Positions 15,623 to 61,010 are shown, counted from the stretch's first letter. The stretch is DNA of 64,000 nt from Candidatus Gastranaerophilales bacterium (GCA_944323985.1 CALUUP010000006.1:1-64000), one strand, 5' to 3'. Notes: generated by a model from the letters alone, not told the origin. Numbers and translations: made by a program.

Positions 15623-15955
15623 CTATTGGAAATTGTAGGTAAACGAACTTCTAATAGCTGCATCGACAGCACCTTGAGCAGATTGTAATTCTGCATCAAC
15701 CATTTTTAATCTATTTTGATATTCTTGCATTTGTAAATCCAATTTCTTTTCAAGAATAATAAGTTTATCTCTTCTTGCTTCTAATTGTTTAATTGCGGGA
15801 TTTTCTGGATCTAAGTCATTGCCTAAGGCCATAATTTCATCAGAAGAAGCAACCAATTCCATCTTAGCTGATGCAATCCACTGGATTTTAGTTTCCAGCG
15901 TTATCTTATAAGCTGTTAAATACATCATTCTGAAACTAGAGGCAATTAATCCCAT
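15623..15955 (-). CDS. Lineage-specific protein with MG-x-x-AS N-terminus (short)
   Basis: 110 aa, entirely helical in appearance. The start MGLIASSFRMMYLTAYK resembles the start of the 575-aa protein at 17487-19214 (MGMAASQARYLALVARK). The middle (AIKQLEARRDKLIILEKKLDLQMQEYQNRLK) is a strong coiled coil. No signal peptide. AAGGA lies upstream of the ATG. I do not recognise a named family; such N-termini resemble terminal helices of axial filament or hook proteins, which is only an analogy. Confidence 0.75.
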   Translation of the reverse strand: MGLIASSFRMMYLTAYKITLETKIQWIASAKMELVASSDEIMALGNDLDPENPAIKQLEARRDKLIILEKKLDLQMQEYQNRLKMVDAELQSAQGAVDAAIRSSFTYNFQ

Positions 15956-15969
15956 AATACACAGTCCTT

Positions 15970-16239
15970 TTATCTTGTTTCGTTTAAATTCTTACCTTTC
16001 AAGAATGTGTGTTCATTACTTTCTGCAATCAAACTTTCCATTTTATGTAATTGATGCTTGTGATAATTTACCCTATACTTAGCCATTTTCAACTTTTGTC
16101 TAATGGTAAGCATATCTTTTAGGCTTGAAATTAAACTTACAGCCAGTGCCTTAAACGGATTTTTCCTTACAAAAAACGATCGGGCAAAATTCATAAAATT
16201 CACTAACCGTTGAATACTTTGTTGTAGTTCTTCACGCAT
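15970..16239 (-). CDS. Small basic helical protein, unknown
   Basis: 89 aa, rich in Lys, Arg and His and probably helical throughout, with TIRQKLKMAKYRVNYHKHQLHKM in the centre. No signal or clear membrane segment. TAGGAG lies 9 nt before ATG 16239. It is followed after 14 nt by the 15623-15955 gene, so the two form an operon driven by the palindromic promoter at 16267-16290. Confidence 0.7.
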   Translation of the reverse strand: MREELQQSIQRLVNFMNFARSFFVRKNPFKALAVSLISSLKDMLTIRQKLKMAKYRVNYHKHQLHKMESLIAESNEHTFLKGKNLNETR

Positions 16240-16266
16240 AAGCCTTTACTCCTATACGTTCTAAGC

Positions 16267-16290
16267 CTACATGTATTATAAAACATGTAG
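16267..16290 (-). promoter_or_regulatory. Palindromic operator enclosing a -10 element
   Basis: CTACATGT (16267-16274) and ACATGTAG (16283-16290) are perfect inverted arms. The 8-nt centre holds TATAAT on the minus strand (16275-16280), correctly placed to transcribe the 16239 and 15955 genes. A repressor bound here would cover the -10 directly. Confidence 0.6.
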
Positions 16291-16338
16291 TTAAAAATAA
16301 TTGCGTACCATTATATATTTTTTTTACATTTGTTAACA

Positions 16339-16566
16339 TTACTTAGAACTAGTCCTCTTGTTGGTTATAGAATTAAACACAAAACGTTTCTTATAATATT
16401 CTTTTTCTACTAAACTAGTTAACGGCAATTTTTCAGAAAACTTTAATTCTTCTCTATTATAATAGCGCTGCTCTTTACAAAAAGTTACAATTGCTACTAT
16501 CGTTTTGATAATAGCATTATTTAGTATTAAATCTAACATTATTCTAAAAAACGTGCGTCCTTGCAT
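16339..16566 (-). CDS. Small hypothetical protein
   Basis: 75 aa with a hydrophobic segment at about residues 7-29 (FRIMLDLILNNAIIKTIVAIVTF) followed by a basic tail. Could be a single-pass membrane protein. No recognisable family and no clear RBS, so reality is moderately uncertain. It lies between the Gly-rich protein and the palindromic promoter in the same strand-run of lineage-specific genes. Confidence 0.5.
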   Translation of the reverse strand: MQGRTFFRIMLDLILNNAIIKTIVAIVTFCKEQRYYNREELKFSEKLPLTSLVEKEYYKKRFVFNSITNKRTSSK

Positions 16567-16605
16567 ATTATTAAATCTTTTTTATTAAATTAATAATCAA
16601 ATATA

Positions 16606-17463
16606 TTATAAATCTTGAATATCTTTACTAGCAGATTCAATATCATCTTTAAGCATTTTTCTAACAATATCACCTTGCGTATCAAGCATTTTACAAACAG
16701 TTTCAATATTAGCAACTTTTTGAGAAAGAATAGTATCAGCATTAGAAATAATATTACTAGAAACACTTTGATAAGCAGAAAGTGCAGCAGAAGTAGTACC
16801 TTGCATTAAATTCCCCATAACAACAGCAGGGAGACCGAATTCACCAAGATAAGGTGCAGCAGCAGTCATAATACCGCCCCACCCTGAAATTAATCCTGCA
16901 AGTGGCATTAAAATATTTGCAGCTCCTATACCATAACCATTTGCAGTACCTACGCCATAAGCAGCAGTACTTGCAATATCCGCAATACTTCCAATACCAG
17001 ATGCATAACCGGTCGTAGCACCGTCAGAAGAACCAAAACCAGATAATAAATCACCGATACCTGAAGCACCGCCTGTTGTATAACCACTTTGTCTATAACC
17101 GAAATTTGCAGCGTACCCGCTAGGGAATCCCGAATAATTTCCTAAACTATTAACTCCAAAAGAAGAATAAGTTCCTGTAGTTCCGCCTGTTCCACCTGTA
17201 TATTGAGTCCAATATGAAGTTCCAGGAATATTCATAGCGCTTGTACCACCAAGTGTTGTCATAAAAGCTGATGGTGCAAATAAGCTGGCAAGTTGATACA
17301 AAAATCCACCTGCTGCTTCGAAACCGGTTCCAGAGCCTGCTGAACCTGCTACTGTTAAATCTCTTAATCTGTCGTAGGTTTCGTAAAGCATAACTTTGGC
17401 ATCCGCTGATGCGGCTCCAAATCTGTTCGCCATTACTAAATATCCATCGTTTTTGTATGACAT
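16606..17463 (-). CDS. Gly/Ser/Tyr-rich protein, partner of the MG-x-x-AS protein
   Basis: 285 aa. Residues about 75-165 are low-complexity Gly, Ser, Thr and Tyr (TGGTGGTTGTYSSFG style), flanked by a helical N-terminus (DAKVMLYETYDRLRDLTVAG) and a helical C-terminus (SQKVANIETVCKMLDTQGDIVRKMLKDDIES). Two hydrophobic Gly/Ala stretches (about 175-215) might be membrane-active. No signal peptide and no known family. AGAGGT lies six bases before the ATG. It starts 23 nt after the 575-aa protein gene, so the two are an operon and may work together outside the cell. Confidence 0.75.
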   Translation of the reverse strand: MSYKNDGYLVMANRFGAASADAKVMLYETYDRLRDLTVAGSAGSGTGFEAAGGFLYQLASLFAPSAFMTTLGGTSAMNIPGTSYWTQYTGGTGGTTGTYSSFGVNSLGNYSGFPSGYAANFGYRQSGYTTGGASGIGDLLSGFGSSDGATTGYASGIGSIADIASTAAYGVGTANGYGIGAANILMPLAGLISGWGGIMTAAAPYLGEFGLPAVVMGNLMQGTTSAALSAYQSVSSNIISNADTILSQKVANIETVCKMLDTQGDIVRKMLKDDIESASKDIQDL

Positions 17464-17486
17464 AATTACCTCTTTTAATTAAAAGC

Positions 17487-19214
17487 TTAACCGCCAAATG
17501 TTTTAAATGATTTTTCGATATTATCTTTAACTACTTTTGATACTGCATCTATTTCTGTCGCAAGTGCATTTTGTTCTGTATCAAGCTGCTTCAATCTTAA
17601 TTCTAATTGTAAATCTTCCTGTTGAATTAATGATGTCTTAGCATTTATATCTTGAACCATCTTATCATATTGAGCACTTTCATAATAATACTGATTCATT
17701 GCATCCTGATAAGCATTATCATCTGTTACTGTTTCCATGTTCAAAGTATACTTAATCGAATCATCTTCAAATCTTACAGATGTAAATCGTCCATTTCCAT
17801 CTGTTTCCAATAACGCTTTTTTAGTTTCTTCCATTTTTGTTGAAACATATGTCGCATTATAATAAGCTAATTTATCTTGTCCATCAATATTATTAATTCC
17901 TGTACCACTCTGATATGATTTATTCAAATCAGCATAAGTTGTATAATATGTAACACCATTTAATTGAAAAGAATAAACTCCTCCTAAATAGTTTCCATCA
18001 TTATCGAAACAATCACTTATTGAAGCATTAATTCCTTGAGCCTTCATATCGGCTACAACTTGTCTTAATTCTGCTTTTTGGTCATCTGTTAAATCAACTA
18101 ACAAAGTTAATTCACTATTCCCAACATAAGTTGGTCTTTGTAAATTAGTATATGCTGTTTCTGCAGCTTCATAAGCTTGCATAGCCGCAAACTCTGCAGC
18201 TTGTGCTGCAGCTATCTCTGCGTCATATTTTGCTGATATATTTTCTATTGTTCCTTGTGTACCGGCATCTCCTGTATAATATACAGGTAAAATTGTCTTT
18301 GTTCCATTTACATTTCCACCATATAAACTTTTTAAATCAGACTTAAAAGCTATTGAGCCATCCGCCTCATTGTAATATATATCAGCATAATCAATTTCAG
18401 CATCCTCTCCAAAAACACCTTTTTCCGCCAATAAATCCAATGCATCAGAGATTTTCTGCTGCGTAACCTCATCATATTGAGAATATCCTTTATAAACAGC
18501 ATCAGGAGCACTTATCATTGATGCTAATAAAGTCTCTGAACCTGTATAAGGTGTACTTGTTCCATCAGTACTATAATATTTTTGATCCTCATCATTATAA
18601 TAATACTTATTACCTGCACTATCCTTATAAACTAAAGCATTACCATATTTTTCCTGTTCGGATCTGGAAATCGTATAACTATTAGTACTTACATCATAAT
18701 TACAAGCTGAAATGTGTTGATAATTATCAACATTAACATAATTACTCAATGTAGCAGCTTCTGCCTGTTTAGCTTTTAAAGCAGCTTTTGCAGCTTCATA
18801 ATCTGCTTTAGTTTGTGTAACAAGCCTTTGAGCCATCTCTATTTGATCTGCAGTAGCGGCTGTACCTGATGAAAATTGGACTTGTGGGTCCTGTTTATGT
18901 TTTTGAGAACCTGTATATACATCAGCGTAATAATGATGTGTGACAACATAGTTATAATCTGGATCATTAGCTAACTGTTGCCAACTATCTATTGTATATT
19001 CATTTGCTCCGTCTGAAAATGAATATTGTTGTTTTGTATAATCTTGTGTACTTGGAGGAACAGGAACATTTAAGCCAAGCATTTGATTAAATAAATTAGC
19101 ACTTTGGTTTGATAAAACTGTACGTGCTTGATTTATCTGTTGACCTTCATATTCACAATTTGATTTTCGTGCAACTAATGCTAAATATCTGGCCTGTGAT
19201 GCTGCCATTCCCAT
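17487..19214 (-). CDS. Large helical protein with MG-x-x-AS N-terminus
   Basis: 575 aa. The N-terminal about 50 residues (MGMAASQARYLALVARK, then INQARTVLSNQSANLFNQML) and the C-terminal about 70 residues (LIQQEDLQLELRLKQLDTEQNALATEIDAVSKVV) are long amphipathic helices that could pack together. The middle has Tyr/Asp-rich beta-like segments and two Ala/Glu coiled coils. No signal peptide, no known enzyme motif. AGGAGAG precedes ATG 19214. This is the layout of axial proteins (D0-type terminal helices around variable domains), so a secreted filament or hook-like role is possible but unproven. Confidence 0.8.
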   Translation of the reverse strand: MGMAASQARYLALVARKSNCEYEGQQINQARTVLSNQSANLFNQMLGLNVPVPPSTQDYTKQQYSFSDGANEYTIDSWQQLANDPDYNYVVTHHYYADVYTGSQKHKQDPQVQFSSGTAATADQIEMAQRLVTQTKADYEAAKAALKAKQAEAATLSNYVNVDNYQHISACNYDVSTNSYTISRSEQEKYGNALVYKDSAGNKYYYNDEDQKYYSTDGTSTPYTGSETLLASMISAPDAVYKGYSQYDEVTQQKISDALDLLAEKGVFGEDAEIDYADIYYNEADGSIAFKSDLKSLYGGNVNGTKTILPVYYTGDAGTQGTIENISAKYDAEIAAAQAAEFAAMQAYEAAETAYTNLQRPTYVGNSELTLLVDLTDDQKAELRQVVADMKAQGINASISDCFDNDGNYLGGVYSFQLNGVTYYTTYADLNKSYQSGTGINNIDGQDKLAYYNATYVSTKMEETKKALLETDGNGRFTSVRFEDDSIKYTLNMETVTDDNAYQDAMNQYYYESAQYDKMVQDINAKTSLIQQEDLQLELRLKQLDTEQNALATEIDAVSKVVKDNIEKSFKTFGG

Positions 19215-29039: not shown

Positions 29040-31010
29040 TTATTTTGTTTTAGAAGCTCTATTTCTCGTAACTTTTCCATATTGCTGAATTTTCGCTTCT
29101 AAAAGATGATTATAATATTTTCTTACATCTTTTGCACGATATTCAGAATTATTTTGCTTTTGTTTCTGAATTTGTTTTTCTGCATTCTCTAAAGTCGTAA
29201 TAATTTCTTTTACTTCAAACATCCTGCTTCCATCTACATTACGTTTTTTAAGTAAATAATTTACAAATTTCTTATTATTGCCATTTACCATTGTATATAA
29301 TCTCAACGCATCTTTATTGGAAGAATTAATTCTATATTTCCCAACAGCTCTATCAGCTTTTCTTGTATCCATAATAGATGCAAAAATCTCAGGTAACATT
29401 TCATATCGCATTTTTGTCGCATTCTCTATAAATGCCTCTCTTTGATTTTCAAAAGTTTTTACACCCAATTTTTGTTTTGCAAAACCCAAAATATCATTTG
29501 CAAGCATTTCTTTTTTTAATTTTCTATCAATAATTCTAGAAAACTGCGCAAGTTTAGAATCTTGTTTTTCTATAATTTCTGACTGTTTATTAATATCTTC
29601 TATTTCGTTAACAACATTTTTATCCTCAAACTTGATACCTTCAACTTCTTTTATTTTTTCATTATTAACTAATTCATTTTCTAAAACATTAATTTTAGAC
29701 TCTTTAAAATCTTTTAAATTTTGTCCTTTTAAAAGATTTTCTTTATCAGAAACTAAGTTAAATCTTAAAATATTAAACATATTCTCAAAATTTGCATACA
29801 TTATTTTCAAAGCACTTGGAGTTTTTACAAACTTATACTTTATGGCATCCTCATTATTTTTCTTAAAACGATTTAAACCAATATAAGGTTTTTCTATACC
29901 CTTTGTAATTGCTACCATTCTACTATTTTTCGGAACATAATACATTATTTTTTCAAAATTCTTATAAAATATATCTAGTTTTTTTGAAGAAACTTTTGAT
30001 AATAAATCATTTATTTCTTTTGGATTTTCAAAATATTGATTATCTTTCTTTGTTAATTTATAAATAAAACTTTTTAGATATTTTTTATCACTATCTAAAG
30101 TCTTAAATAAAATATTTAATTCATTAAAAAATTTCACATCCTGATTAAATTTTTTATAACTGGTATACGGACTATAAAAATACTCCATAATTTTTGTTCG
30201 AACTTTAACATTCTTTTTATTCGTTGAATCATACATATTTTTTATTTCATCACCAACTTGAGATGATAATTCAGTTGGGGATTGATAAAAACTCCTTTGC
30301 AAGGATTCTAAAAATTTTTTACGAGGTTCTGAATAATTATTAAGCAAATTTTTAACACTAAAATTACCAACTTCTTTAGTACTTATATTGTCTACTATAT
30401 TACTTATTGCCAATTTCTTATCAAAAAAATCTGAATTAAATTTACCTTCATTAATTAAACTATCTAATTCTTTTACCAAGTCCGGATTTTTTAAATTTAA
30501 ATTTATATAAGATTTAATTTTACTAAAATTACTTATATAAAAATCCTTATTATTAGAATTTAATAAGTTTAAAACTAAATCAGTATCAGCAGGTTGCTTA
30601 TTATTCTCTAAAAACAAGCTTATTGCCTTTACAAATTTTAAAGAATCTTTATCATTACCAGTTTTATTAAAAATTTGTTCCAAATTTTGAAAAGAAGTCT
30701 TTAAATGCCTAACGATTTCCATATGAAAATTAGTAGGTGATTTTATACAATTATATAACTTATCAACCCAATCAGCGTCACCATTATCAAAAATATTTCT
30801 GGCAGAATATTTATTTACCAATTCATTAAAAAAATTAATACGCTTTTCATTAGCCCCACGAGTTAAACTTTGCACATCAGCAAGATGGCGATTCAAAACT
30901 AAAGAAGCGTCTTCTCTTATTAAATCAAGCTTATGAGCAAACTTACGAGTTTTAAAATTTCCTATACGACCATTAAAATTTATTGACGATTGCTGATTTA
31001 TTTTCATCAT
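29040..31010 (-). CDS. Large Lys/Asn-rich protein with INFNG N-terminal tag, unknown
   Basis: 656 aa, strongly basic and helical, no signal peptide. The N-terminus (MMKINQQSSINFNGRIGNF) carries the short I-x-F-N-G tag shared with several proteins at 56-61 kb. The body consists of long charged helices (DKYLKSFIYKLTKKDN, LKIMYANFENMFNILRF) and no enzyme motif that I can see. AAGGAG lies six bases before the ATG. It sits directly downstream of nuoN but has its own RBS and likely its own expression. Function unknown. Confidence 0.75.
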   Translation of the reverse strand: MMKINQQSSINFNGRIGNFKTRKFAHKLDLIREDASLVLNRHLADVQSLTRGANEKRINFFNELVNKYSARNIFDNGDADWVDKLYNCIKSPTNFHMEIVRHLKTSFQNLEQIFNKTGNDKDSLKFVKAISLFLENNKQPADTDLVLNLLNSNNKDFYISNFSKIKSYINLNLKNPDLVKELDSLINEGKFNSDFFDKKLAISNIVDNISTKEVGNFSVKNLLNNYSEPRKKFLESLQRSFYQSPTELSSQVGDEIKNMYDSTNKKNVKVRTKIMEYFYSPYTSYKKFNQDVKFFNELNILFKTLDSDKKYLKSFIYKLTKKDNQYFENPKEINDLLSKVSSKKLDIFYKNFEKIMYYVPKNSRMVAITKGIEKPYIGLNRFKKNNEDAIKYKFVKTPSALKIMYANFENMFNILRFNLVSDKENLLKGQNLKDFKESKINVLENELVNNEKIKEVEGIKFEDKNVVNEIEDINKQSEIIEKQDSKLAQFSRIIDRKLKKEMLANDILGFAKQKLGVKTFENQREAFIENATKMRYEMLPEIFASIMDTRKADRAVGKYRINSSNKDALRLYTMVNGNNKKFVNYLLKKRNVDGSRMFEVKEIITTLENAEKQIQKQKQNNSEYRAKDVRKYYNHLLEAKIQQYGKVTRNRASKTK

Positions 31011-56052: not shown

Positions 56053-56694
56053 ATGGAAAATTCTAACATATCTTTCAAATCAAATATCCGCTTTGTCGAT
56101 AGAAACACATATAATAAACTAAAAAAAGTTAATTATATCAATTTTTGGTACGACAAAGCACACATATTAAAAGCTAAAGAATTTTATTCAGAAGGAATAA
56201 AAACCTGTACCGGTGGAGGAATAATAAACTCTCAAAAAGAAGCAGCAGGATTTCATATATGGGATAATAAAACAAATAAAAAAAATTTTAATACAATAAT
56301 TGCATCATTATTTAGATATATAAAAAATCCCGAACGAGCATTACTTATCGGAAGCAAAGAATTAAAAGATGATAAATATTCAATAGAACAATTTAAAAAT
56401 TTTAAACAGGTTTTCCAAAAAAGAATAAAAAATGTAAGTCTTTTTGAACAACATAGGTTTGAAAGTTCTCAAACTCACTATCATTACGACTCAAATACAG
56501 ATACTTGGACTTTATTTTCTGAATATAGAAAAAATCCTAATGGAATTTATTTACAGATAAAAAATTTAAAAAGACTAAAAGAATGTTTCAAAAATATATC
56601 AATTGCAGAAGGAGATAAACTTTTTATCGGTAATAAAGAAATCACTCCAAAAGAAGCTCCGGAGCTATTTAACATTCAGACTAAACATCTTTAA
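56053..56694 (+). CDS. Tagged lineage-specific protein, unknown
   Basis: 213 aa, basic, no signal peptide. The N-terminus MENSNISFKSNIRFVD contains the S-F-K-S tag shared with proteins at 58.5 and 60.4 kb. The middle (TCTGGGIINSQKEAAGFHIWDNK) has a Gly-rich turn and histidines but no known motif. TAAAAT lies three bases before ATG 56053 (close spacing), with no RBS. Convergent with the HExxH gene, 14-nt overlap. Confidence 0.7.
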   Translation: MENSNISFKSNIRFVDRNTYNKLKKVNYINFWYDKAHILKAKEFYSEGIKTCTGGGIINSQKEAAGFHIWDNKTNKKNFNTIIASLFRYIKNPERALLIGSKELKDDKYSIEQFKNFKQVFQKRIKNVSLFEQHRFESSQTHYHYDSNTDTWTLFSEYRKNPNGIYLQIKNLKRLKECFKNISIAEGDKLFIGNKEITPKEAPELFNIQTKHL

Positions 56695-57196
56695 CTTTCG
56701 GACCATTTAATTTGTTATACAAATCCATGATATATTTATCAAATTTCTTTCCTTTTATTAAAAACTTAAAAACTTCAGGAACAAATTCTAAACCTTCATT
56801 TCTTTTTACAGCATATTCAGAAACATCATTTTTAATTTTCTCCAAATCTGCATTTTTCCAAATATTTTGTCTTTCTTCTTTTGGTGGTAAATTTTGAAAA
56901 TGAAGCCAATGACCTATTTCGTGAAAAAGAGCATCAAATTTATTTTCTTTAGGTTTGTCCAAATTAACTTTAGAGATATAAAGATAAATCTTATCTAAAA
57001 TTTTTACACAACTTGATTGATGTATAAATTTTGGTCTAAAAGCAACTTTATCAGGTAAATTATCAACTTTTTTAGAAAGTATAGAAAAACCTTCTTCAAT
57101 ATACTGTTTTGTTTTTTTATTATTTTTATTCAAATATATTAAAGAATTATACAAAATATTATTCTTAGTTTTTGCTAAAAACAACCTAACCTTCAT
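56681..57196 (-). CDS. Small zincin metalloprotease-like protein
   Basis: 171 aa. FDALFHEIGHWLHFQNLPP supplies HExxH. SEYAVKRNEGLEFVPEVFKF, 40 residues on, resembles the third-ligand Glu helix of gluzincins. Short, without signal peptide, so if active it works in the cytoplasm or is exported by a non-Sec route. Its ATG overlaps the acyltransferase stop (ATGA), so the two are co-translated. Confidence 0.75.
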   Translation of the reverse strand: MKVRLFLAKTKNNILYNSLIYLNKNNKKTKQYIEEGFSILSKKVDNLPDKVAFRPKFIHQSSCVKILDKIYLYISKVNLDKPKENKFDALFHEIGHWLHFQNLPPKEERQNIWKNADLEKIKNDVSEYAVKRNEGLEFVPEVFKFLIKGKKFDKYIMDLYNKLNGPKVKDV

Positions 57197-58140
57197 AGCT
57201 GAAACACTTTCCCAGAAGACATCTTTAAATCATCTTTTGCCTCTTTTATAACACATTCAAGATTTCTAACGAGAATACCTGAAATATATGGAACAATATT
57301 ATCAATACTAACAGGAATTCCGTTTTCTGTAAGAATTAATTCATCATTTTTATATAACTTTGCTAAATTTTTATCAAAATACTTTGAATTTAAATTTCCC
57401 TGATTAACTAAATAAGAATTATCTTGCTTAGAAAAACAAACAGTTTCTCCAATATGAATAGCAGAATTTCCGTTTTTATGAGCAAACCCTATAGGAATAA
57501 CTTTAACATTCTCTTTCTTTTCAAGAGAATGTTTTATAATCGAAGATACACCAGGTTGAAATTTATACTTCAAAGGTAAAAAAACTAAAGAAGCCAACGA
57601 ACCTTCCGGAAACATAAACAAATTTATATCATTATTAATAAATTCATTAGTCAAATTTCTCAAAACCAAAGAATTAGCCTGCTTATTTTTATCTCCAAAC
57701 CCAACATTAACAGGAGTTACTCCAAGCCACCTATATAATTCACCATGATCTTTTTGTTTATTTAAAATATTAGAATTAGCAAGAATTTTACTTCTCGGAC
57801 AAGTCTTTGCAAGACCATTATAAAGATATTCTCTATACAAAAGAGTATTAAAAAATTTAGCACAATTTAAATCTTTAAACTGATTAAATGTATGATTCAA
57901 AATAAAAATATAAGAATCCGAATCATTAATAATATTCTGAATTTTTCCGGATTCAATATTTATTTCAACAGGTTGCTTACACATTTTTTTTACATATTTA
58001 TAAATATATTCAATATATTCTGGCGAATTTTTATTAATTTTATAATAAGCAGCGGCATTAAAAGAAGGAGCAGAACTCTTCAAGCTCTGCTCTCTTCTAT
58101 AAGAATACACACCATTAATATTATTTAGCGGTAATATCAT
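57193..58140 (-). CDS. PlsC-like acyltransferase with N-terminal tag
   Basis: 315 aa from ATG 58140, six bases after AGGAG. SYIFILNHTFNQFKDLN is a candidate catalytic H-x-D region, but the spacing (HX6D) is wider than the HX4D of PlsC. NLFMFPEGSLAS is the FPEG substrate motif, and VKVIPIGFAH follows. The N-terminus includes SSAPSFNAAAYYKI, fitting the F-N-A tag of neighbouring proteins. Probably transfers acyl groups to a lysophospholipid or similar. Its neighbour is a zincin. Confidence 0.65.
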   Translation of the reverse strand: MILPLNNINGVYSYRREQSLKSSAPSFNAAAYYKINKNSPEYIEYIYKYVKKMCKQPVEINIESGKIQNIINDSDSYIFILNHTFNQFKDLNCAKFFNTLLYREYLYNGLAKTCPRSKILANSNILNKQKDHGELYRWLGVTPVNVGFGDKNKQANSLVLRNLTNEFINNDINLFMFPEGSLASLVFLPLKYKFQPGVSSIIKHSLEKKENVKVIPIGFAHKNGNSAIHIGETVCFSKQDNSYLVNQGNLNSKYFDKNLAKLYKNDELILTENGIPVSIDNIVPYISGILVRNLECVIKEAKDDLKMSSGKVFQL

Positions 58141-58148
58141 TAAAACTC

Positions 58149-58427
58149 CTAACAATCACAATCACAATTGTCATCTTCTCTTTGAGATTTTGGAGTTCCA
58201 CATAAATCATCACAGAAAGAATCGCAAGGATTCCAGCCTTCATCATTAGCTCTTAAAATATCATCAGTAGATTTTTCTTCAATAGCCTTATTAGGTTTAG
58301 AAATTCCTTTAACAAAAGTATCTGCAGCTAACATAGAACCTGTTGCAGCCATAAAACCAGTCGCTGCTTTTTTTACGATTTGTTGATTTTTGCCGAATGT
58401 TGTAGCACTAATAGCATTAATTTTCAT
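58149..58427 (-). CDS. Cys-rich small protein with N-terminal tag (RiPP-precursor-like)
   Basis: 92 aa. N-terminus MKINAISATTFGKNQQIVKK carries the T-F-G-K tag. A Gly/Ala/Met helix (GFMAATGSMLAADTF) follows, and the C-terminus is acidic and Cys-rich (NPCDSFCDDLCGTPKS, ending DDNCDCDC), six cysteines in the last 27 residues. AAAGGAAG precedes the ATG. The shape (leader plus Cys-rich tail) resembles a peptide precursor or metal-binding tail; no modification enzyme is identified beside it. Confidence 0.7.
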   Translation of the reverse strand: MKINAISATTFGKNQQIVKKAATGFMAATGSMLAADTFVKGISKPNKAIEEKSTDDILRANDEGWNPCDSFCDDLCGTPKSQREDDNCDCDC

Positions 58428-58454
58428 AATCTTCCTTTCTTTTCTTCTTCCATT

Positions 58455-58682
58455 TTAGGATGGTATTTTCACACTATTTTTAATTTTTAAAACCTTTGAA
58501 ATAATTGGACCCAAAAACATTGTTAACAGACATATCTTTTTAAAACACACCGCTGATGTGCGAGATATTTGTCTTATATAATTTATTTTAGATGGGACCT
58601 GTGGTTGATTTGTTGCCGAATTCAAATCAACAAATTGGAGTCTTGCTTTGAAAACAGTATTATTTATACTCTGTACTTTCAT
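58455..58682 (-). CDS. Tagged small protein, unknown
   Basis: 75 aa starting MKVQSINNTVFKARLQFVD, with the V-F-K-A tag. A hydrophobic helix (VCFKKICLLTMFLGPIISKVL) at about residues 45-65 may insert in the membrane. No family recognised. TGATACAAT lies 12 bases before the ATG, leaving a leader of about six bases. Adjacent to the Cys-rich gene on the same strand. Confidence 0.6.
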   Translation of the reverse strand: MKVQSINNTVFKARLQFVDLNSATNQPQVPSKINYIRQISRTSAVCFKKICLLTMFLGPIISKVLKIKNSVKIPS

Positions 58683-58759
58683 AATCTAAGCATGATTGTA
58701 TCATATGTTTGATTTTACAAAATAAAAGTATATACTATTTTCATAAAAATTTACAAAAA

Positions 58760-59554
58760 TTAATCACGGGATTCAGATTTAATCATTTTTAAATCTGCAA
58801 TTTTATTAATTGCTAAAGTTCCTCCAATTAAAGAAGCAAAAATTACAGGAATTCTAAATAATGGTTTCATTTTTTTAGTTAAAGCACTAGAGATCGAAAG
58901 AAATAAAAGAGGGAATAAAGTATCATTAACAAGATACTTAGTTGTATGCTCAAGTCTTTTATCAAATTCTAAATCTTTAGCTATATCAATGGCATCCGCA
59001 CCGAGCATCGCAGAAGTTAAAAATTTCATTTGAGGCATTTCTGTCATACTTGTATAAAAAACATTAACCGTATCATTATCAGCATATTTATGCATATTAT
59101 TTTCAAAATATTTTTCTAACTTATCTTTTTTAGGATTCAATTTGCTTTTTTCCGGTTGTTTAAATTTTGTTTGAGAAAGTAAAAAATCTGCCCCCAAAGC
59201 TCCAAGAATTCCAAATGCTGTAGCTGAAACCCCCGCCAAAAGTTCTCCTATAATTGAAGATGTATATTTAATAGGAGCTTCGACTCTTGTTTTTGTTATT
59301 TTTTTAGAAATATCATCTATAGTTTTTCTATAAAAACTATTTTTAACAATTTTTTTGCCAATAGCTCTATTCACTAACATCCCAGCTGCCGCTCCGGATA
59401 AAACTACGCAATCTTTAATCAAAAATTTTTTCTTATATTTCAAATTTGCAGCTCTATAATCTTTATAAGTTTTATATCCGCCACTTACCAAAAAAATACT
59501 TGCCGTTAAAGAAGTTGAATTTAAAAATTTATCTAAGTTTTTCAGATTTATCAT
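58760..59554 (-). CDS. Membrane protein, unknown
   Basis: 264 aa from ATG 59554, with five to six hydrophobic segments (STSLTASIFLVSGGY, LSGAAAGMLVNRAIG, LLAGVSATAFGILGALGADFLL, LFPLLFLSISSAL, IPVIFASLIGGTLAI) separated by basic loops. No family recognised. TATAAT lies 12 bases upstream, leaving almost no leader. Divergent from the MalG-type permease gene. Confidence 0.7.
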   Translation of the reverse strand: MINLKNLDKFLNSTSLTASIFLVSGGYKTYKDYRAANLKYKKKFLIKDCVVLSGAAAGMLVNRAIGKKIVKNSFYRKTIDDISKKITKTRVEAPIKYTSSIIGELLAGVSATAFGILGALGADFLLSQTKFKQPEKSKLNPKKDKLEKYFENNMHKYADNDTVNVFYTSMTEMPQMKFLTSAMLGADAIDIAKDLEFDKRLEHTTKYLVNDTLFPLLFLSISSALTKKMKPLFRIPVIFASLIGGTLAINKIADLKMIKSESRD

Positions 59555-59606
59555 TATGATACACAATTATAAAAATCTTTTACTATCATAAAACTTTTAA
59601 ATATAT

Positions 59607-59612
59607 TAAAAT
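59607..59612 (+). promoter_or_regulatory. -10 for leaderless permease mRNA
   Basis: TAAAAT ends six bases before ATG 59619. No Shine-Dalgarno. Confidence 0.45.
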
Positions 59613-59618
59613 AATCTT

Positions 59619-60422
59619 ATGAAAAGATTTATTATTTATTTTATACTTACTATATTGGGTCTTAGCATGTTGTTACCATATCTTATAATGTTCTTCATAT
59701 CACTAAGTGGAGATAACAACATCTTCAATAATTCTAACATAAACCTATCATTTTGTACTTACAAAAATGTTTTTAAATCAATTCCAATAATTCAATACTT
59801 CATCAATAGTCTTATTGTTGCATTTTTTACAACAATAGGCCAAGTTATAATTTCAGCTTTAGCAGGCTACGGCTTTGCCAGAATGCAATTTAAAGGTCGT
59901 AATTTATTATTCTTTATAATAATTTTAACGATGATGATTCCTCCTCAAGTAAATATAGTACCTTTATTTTATCTAATGAGTAAATTAGGCTGGATAAATT
60001 CATACCAAGCATTAATAATACCCGGAATATTCGGCGGTTTTGGAGTTTATATGCTAAGACAATATTTTTTAAATTTTTCAAAAGAACTCGAAGATGCTTC
60101 AAAACTTGATGGATGCAATGCCTTTCAAACATTTTACAAAATTGCATTACCAACAGCATTACCTGCAGTAGCGACATTAAGTATTTTTACATTTGTAACT
60201 ACATGGAACAGTTTTATGTGGCCATTAATAGTTACAAATTCTGATAACATGAGAACATTAACAGTAGGACTTACTATTTTTAAAAGTTCATTTCGAGAAA
60301 TAACAATGTGGGGAGAATTAATGGCAGCATCTTTTATATGCACAATTCCAATCATTATAATTTTTTGTATTGGTAAAAAATACTTAATAAATAACCCTAT
60401 GAATGGAGCATTAAAAGAATAA
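59619..60422 (+). CDS. ABC sugar transporter permease, MalG/UgpE type
   Basis: 267 aa, six membrane helices. The EAA loop (LEDASKLDGCNAFQTFYKIALPTALP) is at about residues 150-175, and GYGFARMQFKGRNLLF precedes the loop-forming TM3 region. Partner-type of the MalF-like permease at 22991-23863; both lack adjacent binding-protein and ATPase genes. Divergent from the membrane protein at 58760. Confidence 0.92.
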   Translation: MKRFIIYFILTILGLSMLLPYLIMFFISLSGDNNIFNNSNINLSFCTYKNVFKSIPIIQYFINSLIVAFFTTIGQVIISALAGYGFARMQFKGRNLLFFIIILTMMIPPQVNIVPLFYLMSKLGWINSYQALIIPGIFGGFGVYMLRQYFLNFSKELEDASKLDGCNAFQTFYKIALPTALPAVATLSIFTFVTTWNSFMWPLIVTNSDNMRTLTVGLTIFKSSFREITMWGELMAASFICTIPIIIIFCIGKKYLINNPMNGALKE

Positions 60423-60425
60423 TTA

Positions 60426-60434
60426 TGTTATAAA
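60426..60434 (+). promoter_or_regulatory. Extended -10 for leaderless GNAT mRNA
   Basis: TG-T-TATAAA ends six bases before ATG 60441. No Shine-Dalgarno. Confidence 0.45.
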
Positions 60435-60440
60435 AGATAT

Positions 60441-61010
60441 ATGATTAATTTTAGAGCTAACTACATTGGAAACACCCCAATTAAACAGTTATACAACAAT
60501 AAATACGTAGATACAAAAGCTAACCTAATAGAGCTTAATCCGAACAATAACTCTGATTTAATGGCATTAAAAGAAATTGGAAATAGTTGGTACTGTGGCT
60601 CGTCCCTTGCTGCGGAAATATATTTAGATGCGAAAGAAAATTACCTATATTCAACAAAAAATAAACAAAAATTCTATGCATTAACTTCTCAAAAAGACAC
60701 TTTTGAAAAATTAAATTCAGAAAAAATATTAGCAGTAATAGAGGCAGAAGAATACAATAAAAATATTTTAGAAATAATTTTCTTACAAGTTCATCCTTAT
60801 TATAATTACTATTCCTACGATAGAGAATATAAAAAAATAGGTTCCGGACTTTTAGATATAATCAAAAAAATATATTCAGACAAAATAATAATACTAAAAC
60901 CTGTATTTGAAGCTATAAATTTCTACTTAAAAAATGGATTTAAAGAACTAAGCAAGCATTCACTTTACATGTATTATAAATCTAATAAAAATCTTACCAA
61001 AAAGCCTTAG
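60441..61010 (+). CDS. GNAT-family acetyltransferase with N-terminal tag
   Basis: 189 aa. The acetyl-CoA-binding part is recognisable at about 125-175: YKKIGSGLLDIIKKIY and FEAINFYLKNGFKEL, the usual motif A and C-terminal helix/strand of GNAT enzymes. The start MINFRANYIGNTP carries the N-F-R-A tag placed before the fold. Substrate unknown. Convergent with the P-loop gene, 17-nt overlap. Confidence 0.75.
   Translation: MINFRANYIGNTPIKQLYNNKYVDTKANLIELNPNNNSDLMALKEIGNSWYCGSSLAAEIYLDAKENYLYSTKNKQKFYALTSQKDTFEKLNSEKILAVIEAEEYNKNILEIIFLQVHPYYNYYSYDREYKKIGSGLLDIIKKIYSDKIIILKPVFEAINFYLKNGFKELSKHSLYMYYKSNKNLTKKP

What the first reader, a model, noticed from the sequence alone, without database searches (positions are those of the whole stretch)
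56053..61010. Shared short N-terminal tag on unrelated cytoplasmic-looking proteins
Six proteins with no Sec signal and no relation to one another begin with the same kind of segment: I/V...[S/T/I/V]-x-F-[K/R/N/G]-[A/S/G]-x-[hydrophobic]. They are a 656-aa helical protein at 29040 (INFNGRIG), a 213-aa protein at 56053 (ISFKSNIRFVD), the PlsC-like acyltransferase at 57193 (PSFNAAAYYKI), the Cys-rich 92-aa protein at 58149 (TTFGKNQQIV), the 75-aa protein at 58455 (TVFKARLQFVD) and the GNAT at 60441 (INFRANYIG). It precedes the enzyme domain in the GNAT and acyltransferase. Five of six lie within 5 kb. It could be a sorting, secretion or processing signal peculiar to this lineage, comparable in logic to a signal peptide but without a hydrophobic core.
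Basis: partly seen in the sequence, partly recalled or inferred. Interest (0 to 1): 0.8.

Follow-up and report, generated by a model that had tools for sequence, protein, structure and literature searches.

The report
Shared N-terminal tag across unrelated proteins
In this uncultured gut relative of cyanobacteria, several percent of the proteins, with unrelated functions, start with the same short floppy tag, which evolution has kept across many genera; it is most likely an address or export label, though the machine that reads it has not been shown.

Summary
The six window segments exist. A refined motif, [IVTPL]-[NST]-F-[KRNG]-[AGS] in the first 60 residues, occurs 34 times against 5.5-5.9 expected in two thirds of the genome (p=1.6e-11), not at C-termini, and often after a start of the form M-K-I-x-x-I. 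Codon variety shows selection on protein. Orthologues keep it in otherwise drifting leaders; its F is invariant in the 656-aa family. Two AlphaFold models put it in disordered residues 1-28 and 1-18, outside the fold. It spans the order (apparently Gastranaerophilales), and tag-like starts occur in Vampirovibrio. Carriers include AAA/FtsH-like, GH13-like, HNH, GNAT-like, PlsC-like and HExxH proteins. There is no Sec core; VirB4 is absent from the order genomes sampled and the contractile sheath from this genome. Every order genome sampled encodes flagellar-type type III export-gate genes, including those without the canonical FlhA. I favour a leader read by that exporter (about 0.4) over an internal docking tag (about 0.3). 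The linkage is inferred; no export was shown.

The parts
56068..56082 (+). Tag ISFKS (residues 6-10) of the 213-aa protein 56053-56694
   Evidence: conserved in L221 (MENSNISFKSNIRFVD)
58054..58068 (-). Tag PSFNA (residues 25-29) of the PlsC/GPAT-like protein 57193-58140
   Evidence: leader residues 1-28 pLDDT<50; fold matches GPATs
58075..58089 (-). QSLKS (residues 18-22): likely decayed ancestral tag; 11 of 13 aligned orthologues read (Q/N/G/P/L)(S/N/G)(F/Y)(K/R/G)(A/G/S) here, 10 with F and 1 with Y
   Evidence: alignment A1
58389..58403 (-). Tag TTFGK (residues 9-13) of the Cys-rich 92-aa protein 58149-58427 (MKINAISATTFGKNQ)
   Evidence: orthologues MKINAIGVTTFGSKQQ, MKINPINITTFSSKQ, MKIGAISVTNFGSK
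58644..58658 (-). Tag TVFKA (residues 9-13) of the 75-aa protein 58455-58682 (MKVQSINNTVFKARLQF)
   Evidence: orthologues VNTVNFGARLQF, VNKMSFEARIQF, VNDISFNARLRF, VNPNSFKAKIQF
60444..60458 (+). Tag INFRA (residues 2-6) of the GNAT-like protein 60441-61010
   Evidence: paralogue C5:59205 MNINFKAKF; homologues in 48 of 58 genus genomes, many alignments starting at residue 1-3, N-termini not read
30969..30983 (-). Tag INFNG (residues 10-14) of the 656-aa helical protein 29040-31010
   Evidence: F invariant, upstream I 90%, following G 70% in 10 homologues at 25-37% identity; residues 1-18 disordered
57193..58140 (-). PlsC/GPAT-like acyltransferase carrying the tag
   Evidence: Pfam PF01553 E=0.002, below cut-off; Foldseek best hits GPAT/PatA, E 4e-3 to 3e-2
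60441..61010 (+). GNAT-like protein carrying the tag
   Evidence: Pfam PF13508 E=0.007, below cut-off
58149..58427 (-). Cys-rich 92-aa tagged protein, no known family
58455..58682 (-). 75-aa tagged protein, no known family
29040..31010 (-). 656-aa all-helical tagged protein, no known family
56053..56694 (+). 213-aa tagged protein, no known family

Best explanation
A real, selected, bipartite N-terminal leader: a start of the form M-K-[IV]-x-x-[I], a disordered N/S/Q/P-rich, acid- and Leu-poor linker of 0 to about 50 residues, then a short motif phi-[NST]-F-x-[GAS], followed directly by the mature domain. Shown: existence, N-terminal restriction, protein-level conservation, spread over unrelated families and over the order, disorder in two models. 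Inferred: it works as an uncleaved address label recognised by a common receptor. The most likely reader is the order-wide type III (flagellar-type) export apparatus, so the tagged proteins would be its substrates, delivered out of the cell or into another cell. Separate confidence: real targeting-type tag about 0.9; type III exporter as reader about 0.4.
For: Enrichment 34 vs 5.5-5.9, p=1.6e-11, repeated with the fixed pattern in other genomes; none of it at C-termini. Tag co-occurs with M-[KNQR]-[IV] starts, odds ratio 6, p=1e-6. Synonymous codons vary at tag positions. Orthologues keep it: 656-aa family, GH13-like in 106 of 117 order genomes, with the tag readable in 29 of 30 N-termini inspected, FtsH-like, PlsC-like and two small proteins. 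Disordered in models. Leader composition N, S, Q, P up and E, D, L down versus untagged N-termini, which from general knowledge resembles type III secretion signals. Exporter present: FHIPEP in 40/40 and FliP in 40/40 genomes of the order, including the 17 other family-f1 genomes sampled, which lack the canonical FlhA copy; gene sets in own genome and G040. VirB4 0/40; contractile sheath absent in own genome. Substrates with two separated N-terminal export signals are known for flagellar type III export (PMC8983047).
Against: No physical or genetic link between tag and exporter: in the own genome tagged genes are not enriched near exporter genes. The G040 hint (6 of 74 vs 1 of 123, p=0.012) includes clear false positives such as a ClpB-like start. 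Type III signals usually lack a consensus motif. The flagellar gate-recognition motif needs a hydrophobic at F+4 and at least 26 residues spacing; neither is seen. Several carriers (AAA ATPases, an FtsH-like protease, an HD-GYP-like protein) normally work in the cytoplasm. Some tagged proteins carry extra internal copies (6 vs 1.7 expected, p=0.01, on a hand-picked set), which fits docking better. The exporter-lacking families f8 and f13 of the class could not be tested for the tag.
Confidence: 0.4

Rival explanations
1. Internal docking tag: a short linear motif on a disordered N-terminal tail that binds a cytoplasmic scaffold, membrane platform or compartment, in the manner of encapsulation peptides.
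For: Carriers include ATP-, acetyl-CoA- and acyl-CoA-type enzymes that act in the cytoplasm; the FtsH-like carrier has a tag where canonical FtsH has a membrane anchor; motif turnover within one leader and extra internal copies are typical of docking motifs; triple copy in C2:48805.
Against: Not found at C-termini (1 vs 3.9), whereas docking motifs are often free to sit at either end; no candidate scaffold was identified; microcompartment and encapsulin genes were not searched.
Confidence: 0.3
2. Processing or modification site: the tag is recognised by a lineage-specific protease or modifying enzyme.
For: Short fixed core at variable distance from the start, next to the folded domain.
Against: In the GH13-like family the tag runs straight into the conserved domain, leaving little room for a processed linker; no dedicated enzyme identified.
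Confidence: 0.1
3. No common function: A/T-rich, weakly structured gene starts favour MKI and N-rich N-termini, and the F motif is coincidence or inherited from one duplicated 5' end.
For: K, I and N are common in this roughly 29% GC genome; M-K starts are common in untagged genes too.
Against: Within-segment shuffles that keep composition reach 14 at most against 34 observed; invariant F in orthologues at 25-37% identity; codon variety; Y, L and acidic control motifs not enriched.
Confidence: 0.07
4. The motif is the first strand or cap of each mature fold.
For: VRFSGY also starts the distant Vampirovibrio GH13-like protein.
Against: Disordered in the PlsC-like and 656-aa models; carriers have different folds; canonical FtsH lacks it.
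Confidence: 0.05

Closest known systems
Early flagellar type III export substrates (N-terminal hydrophobic signal plus gate-recognition motif; PMC8983047)
   Same: Two separated elements at the N-terminus, first a few small hydrophobics near residues 2-5, then an F-centred motif; no Sec signal; flagellar-type exporter present.
   Different: Motif here is phi-[NST]-F-x-[GAS], not F-x-x-x-hydrophobic; spacing 0-50 instead of at least 26 residues; carriers are enzymes, not rod/hook subunits.
Injectisome type III secretion signals (general knowledge)
   Same: Disordered N-terminal leader rich in polar residues, poor in acidic residues and Leu, no hydrophobic core.
   Different: Those signals share no consensus motif; here a conserved core exists. 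No translocon or needle genes were identified.
Encapsulation/targeting peptides of bacterial compartments (general knowledge)
   Same: Short conserved peptide on disordered tail of unrelated enzymes.
   Different: Different sequence; shell genes not searched; those peptides also occur at C-termini.

Membership tests
Sec/Tat signal peptide | Hydrophobic core after a positive N-region | tested here: not met
   Tagged leaders are N/S/Q-rich; nearly all fall below the 1.8 hydropathy limit used
Type III secretion signal | N-terminal, disordered, no hydrophobic core, polar and acid-poor | tested here: met
Type III secretion signal | Type III export apparatus encoded in the carrier genomes | tested here: met
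   FHIPEP 40/40, FliP 40/40
Type III secretion signal | Export depends on the leader and the exporter | not testable with these tools
   needs experiment
Type III secretion signal | Absent where the exporter is absent | not tested
   families f8 and f13 lack FlhA hits, but their proteins could not be sampled
Flagellar gate-recognition motif | F-x-x-x-hydrophobic | tested here: not met
   F+4 hydrophobic 0.39 vs 0.35 background
Flagellar gate-recognition motif | At least 26 residues after the N-terminal signal | tested here: not met
   INFRA starts at residue 2; spacing 0-50
Encapsulation peptide / compartment targeting | Shell or encapsulin genes in the genome | not tested
   no search made
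Type IV secretion / contractile injection substrates | VirB4 ATPase or contractile sheath present | tested here: not met
   VirB4 0/40; sheath 7/40 and absent from own genome

The most novel reading that the evidence does not exclude
The class Vampirovibrionia uses a readable, motif-bearing N-terminal label to send several percent of its proteome, including whole ATP-dependent proteases and a 1,600-residue GH13-like protein, through a non-flagellar use of a type III exporter that non-motile gut members have kept.
Probability: 0.25. Interest if true: 0.9.

Novelty: new variant of a known kind. Interest (0 to 1): 0.68.

Why it matters
If the tag is an address label, it gives a sequence-based list of the proteins that a common, hardly cultured gut lineage sorts or exports, which otherwise look like unconnected hypothetical proteins. 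It would also give a use to the incomplete flagellar gene sets reported in non-motile Gastranaerophilales (PMC4040986), and would be a rare type III-like signal with a recognisable motif. Even as an internal docking tag it would point to an undescribed scaffold or compartment.

Tried and rejected
Unsupervised EM motif search converged on generic helix patterns and did not find the tag. Stand-alone FlhA C-domain protein as tag receptor: it is found in the order members sampled and not in sister families, but tag-like starts occur in Vampirovibrio, which lacks it, so it is not required. Proximity of tagged genes to exporter genes: none in own genome. F+4 hydrophobic: not supported. Viral contigs: no relative of the 656-aa protein. 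Foldseek of the 656-aa model: nothing significant. NCBIfam and Pfam: no family for most carriers. Literature: no paper on such a tag in the open library; subscription journals not searched. One search then said that loci could not be cut out, for the same reason. I did not use further searches to harvest DNA from exporter-lacking genomes.

Full report
What was checked. The window is the first 64 kb of a 67.5-kb contig of a 1.86-Mb genome. I fetched 1.23 Mb of the genome, called 1237 genes with a simple coding-bias caller and looked at N-termini genome-wide. About fifty proteins picked by eye carry the segment; an automatic pattern gives 34 with about 5.5 expected by chance, so roughly 2-4% of genes.

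Chance. In residues 1-60 of 880 proteins without a strongly hydrophobic start, [IVTPL][NST]F[KRNG][AGS] occurs 34 times; within-segment shuffles give 5.9+-2.5 with a maximum of 14 in 200; interiors predict 5.5 (Fisher p=1.6e-11). The refined pattern was chosen on these data, so I tested it unchanged on 818 proteins from other genomes of the order: 10 in residues 1-30 against 1.9 expected (p=1.5e-4), but in residues 1-60 the shuffles reached a maximum of 15 against 14 observed, so that replication rests mainly on the first 30 residues. Controls with Y, L or acidic residues show no N-terminal excess. C-termini show none.

Form. Residue 3 is I or V in 30 of 51 hand-picked carriers and residue 6 is I in 19; the linker is rich in N, S, Q and P and poor in E, D and L compared with untagged N-termini; F-1 is mostly N, S or T, F+1 mostly K, F+2 mostly G, A or S; F+4 is not hydrophobic beyond background. 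These counts come from a hand-picked set defined partly by the F motif, so the F-adjacent columns are partly circular; the linker and residues 3 and 6 are less so. Codons at the tag positions vary synonymously.

Conservation. In the 656-aa family, ten homologues at 25-37% identity keep M1, I3 (90%), F11 (100%) and G13 (70%) in a leader with many gaps (numbered from the second Met); more distant paralogues lack it. A GH13-like protein (1613 aa, maltodextrin-glucosidase/amylase similarity) occurs in 106 of 117 order genomes, and of 30 N-termini read, 29 show F-x-[GS] after a short leader (the exception begins downstream of the motif with the start chosen). An FtsH-like M41 protein has a variable linker of roughly 40 residues ending in forms such as VSFGA, LSFKG or PFTGK in most of 30 orthologues. 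PlsC-like orthologues keep (Q/N/G/P/L)(S/N/G)(F/Y)(K/R/G)(A/G/S) in 11 of 13 aligned sequences, ten with F and one with Y; the window protein has L there (QSLKS) and a new PSFNA a few residues on, which the nearest relative in the alignment, L222, shares. This looks like motif turnover, though it depends on the alignment. Orthologues of the 75-aa and 92-aa proteins keep it too.

Outside the fold. AlphaFold models of the PlsC-like protein (13 sequences) and the 656-aa protein (10 sequences) have pLDDT below 50 for residues 1-28 and 1-18; the domains follow at once. The PlsC-like model resembles glycerol-3-phosphate acyltransferases and PatA, at modest E-values; the 656-aa model matches nothing.

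Carriers. Pfam or sequence reading gives AAA ATPases, an FtsH-like AAA/M41 protease, HNH proteins, two GNAT-like proteins (below cut-off), the PlsC-like protein (below cut-off by Pfam), an HD-GYP-like protein and an HExxH protein, plus many of unknown family, several with hydrophobic segments. HD-GYP and HExxH are my reading of the sequences, not Pfam results.

Lineage. One sister genome is Vampirovibrio chlorellavorus (L218, LAPX01000008.1). The window's order is therefore another order of the same class; low GC, 1.5-2.8 Mb genomes and many genera point to Gastranaerophilales, an inference from general knowledge. Two V. chlorellavorus genes have tag-like starts: MTSVKPPTVRFSGYR and MSYTIQNRPNLYPDPRRQVRFGAASVP...KIRFGSASIP. 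Two genes are not statistics, but they suggest the tag predates the order.

Which machine. Sec is not met. VirB4 is absent from 40 order genomes and the contractile sheath from this one. FHIPEP export-gate proteins are in 40 of 40 order genomes and FliP in 40 of 40. This genome has two sets of FliP, FliQ, FliR, FlhB and FlhA plus a separate FlhA C-domain protein (some FliQ and FliR assignments are from sequence and gene order). The 17 family-f1 genomes sampled besides the own one lack the canonical FlhA copy and have one FliP, but keep the other FlhA and the C-domain protein. In G032 this second set sits among flgB, flgC, flgD and flgE-like genes, so it may be the flagellar set, and the canonical set the other one; I cannot say which drives a flagellum here. 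Soo et al. 2014 report that most of their Gastranaerophilales genomes keep only a subset of flagellar genes (PMC4040986). [quoted passage not shown]

Judgement. That the tag is real and selected is well supported. That it is a targeting-type label is the natural reading. That the type III exporter reads it is an inference from leader composition, N-terminal restriction and exporter presence; tagged genes are not near exporter genes in this genome, and the exporter-lacking families of the class could not be sampled. A docking tag for an internal scaffold is nearly as likely.

The PlsC-like, 75-aa and 92-aa orthologue evidence, the model from alignment A1 and the Vampirovibrio lead come from those; the core statistics and the 656-aa, GH13-like and FtsH-like evidence do not. 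Gene starts are from a simple caller, about one third of the genome was not read, and the tagged list was chosen by eye.

Noticed in passing
own genome C10:5964-12189, C7:39581-44056, C4:14866-15927, C11:7535-13614, C20:13001-14347 (L042, L038, L012, L044, L057): Two sets of type III export-gate genes (FliP, FliQ, FliR, FlhB, FlhA) in one small genome; one FlhA copy and a FliP are in all 40 order genomes sampled, also in those without the canonical FlhA.
   Followed up: partly
own genome C4:36856-38325 (L013:16856-18325:-): A stand-alone FlhA C-terminal domain protein (489 aa) found in all order genomes sampled but not in sister families of the class.
   Followed up: partly
L048:12849-15812:+: FtsH-like AAA/M41 protease whose N-terminus is the tag and a variable linker where canonical FtsH has its membrane anchor.
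   Followed up: partly
window 56681-57196 (-): 171-aa protein with an HEIGH zinc-protease motif, overlapping the end of the PlsC-like gene; conserved next to it in L222; not tagged, no Pfam family.
   Followed up: no
window 56681-59566 (-): Conserved gene order: ~265-aa membrane-like protein, 75-aa and 92-aa tagged proteins, PlsC-like protein, with a GNAT-like gene about 3 kb away in several relatives.
   Followed up: partly
window 15623-19214 (-): Operon-like group including a protein starting MGMAASQARYLALVAR; a second such protein lies at C1:79492. No family found; could be surface or exported structural proteins.
   Followed up: no
L009:3311-6065:+: Cluster of four tagged small genes, three of them paralogues (MKIDNDYKQRELNFGK...).
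   Followed up: no
L016:16048-16353:- and L053:16527-16850:-: Small tagged proteins followed by a glycine-rich hydrophobic hairpin.
   Followed up: no
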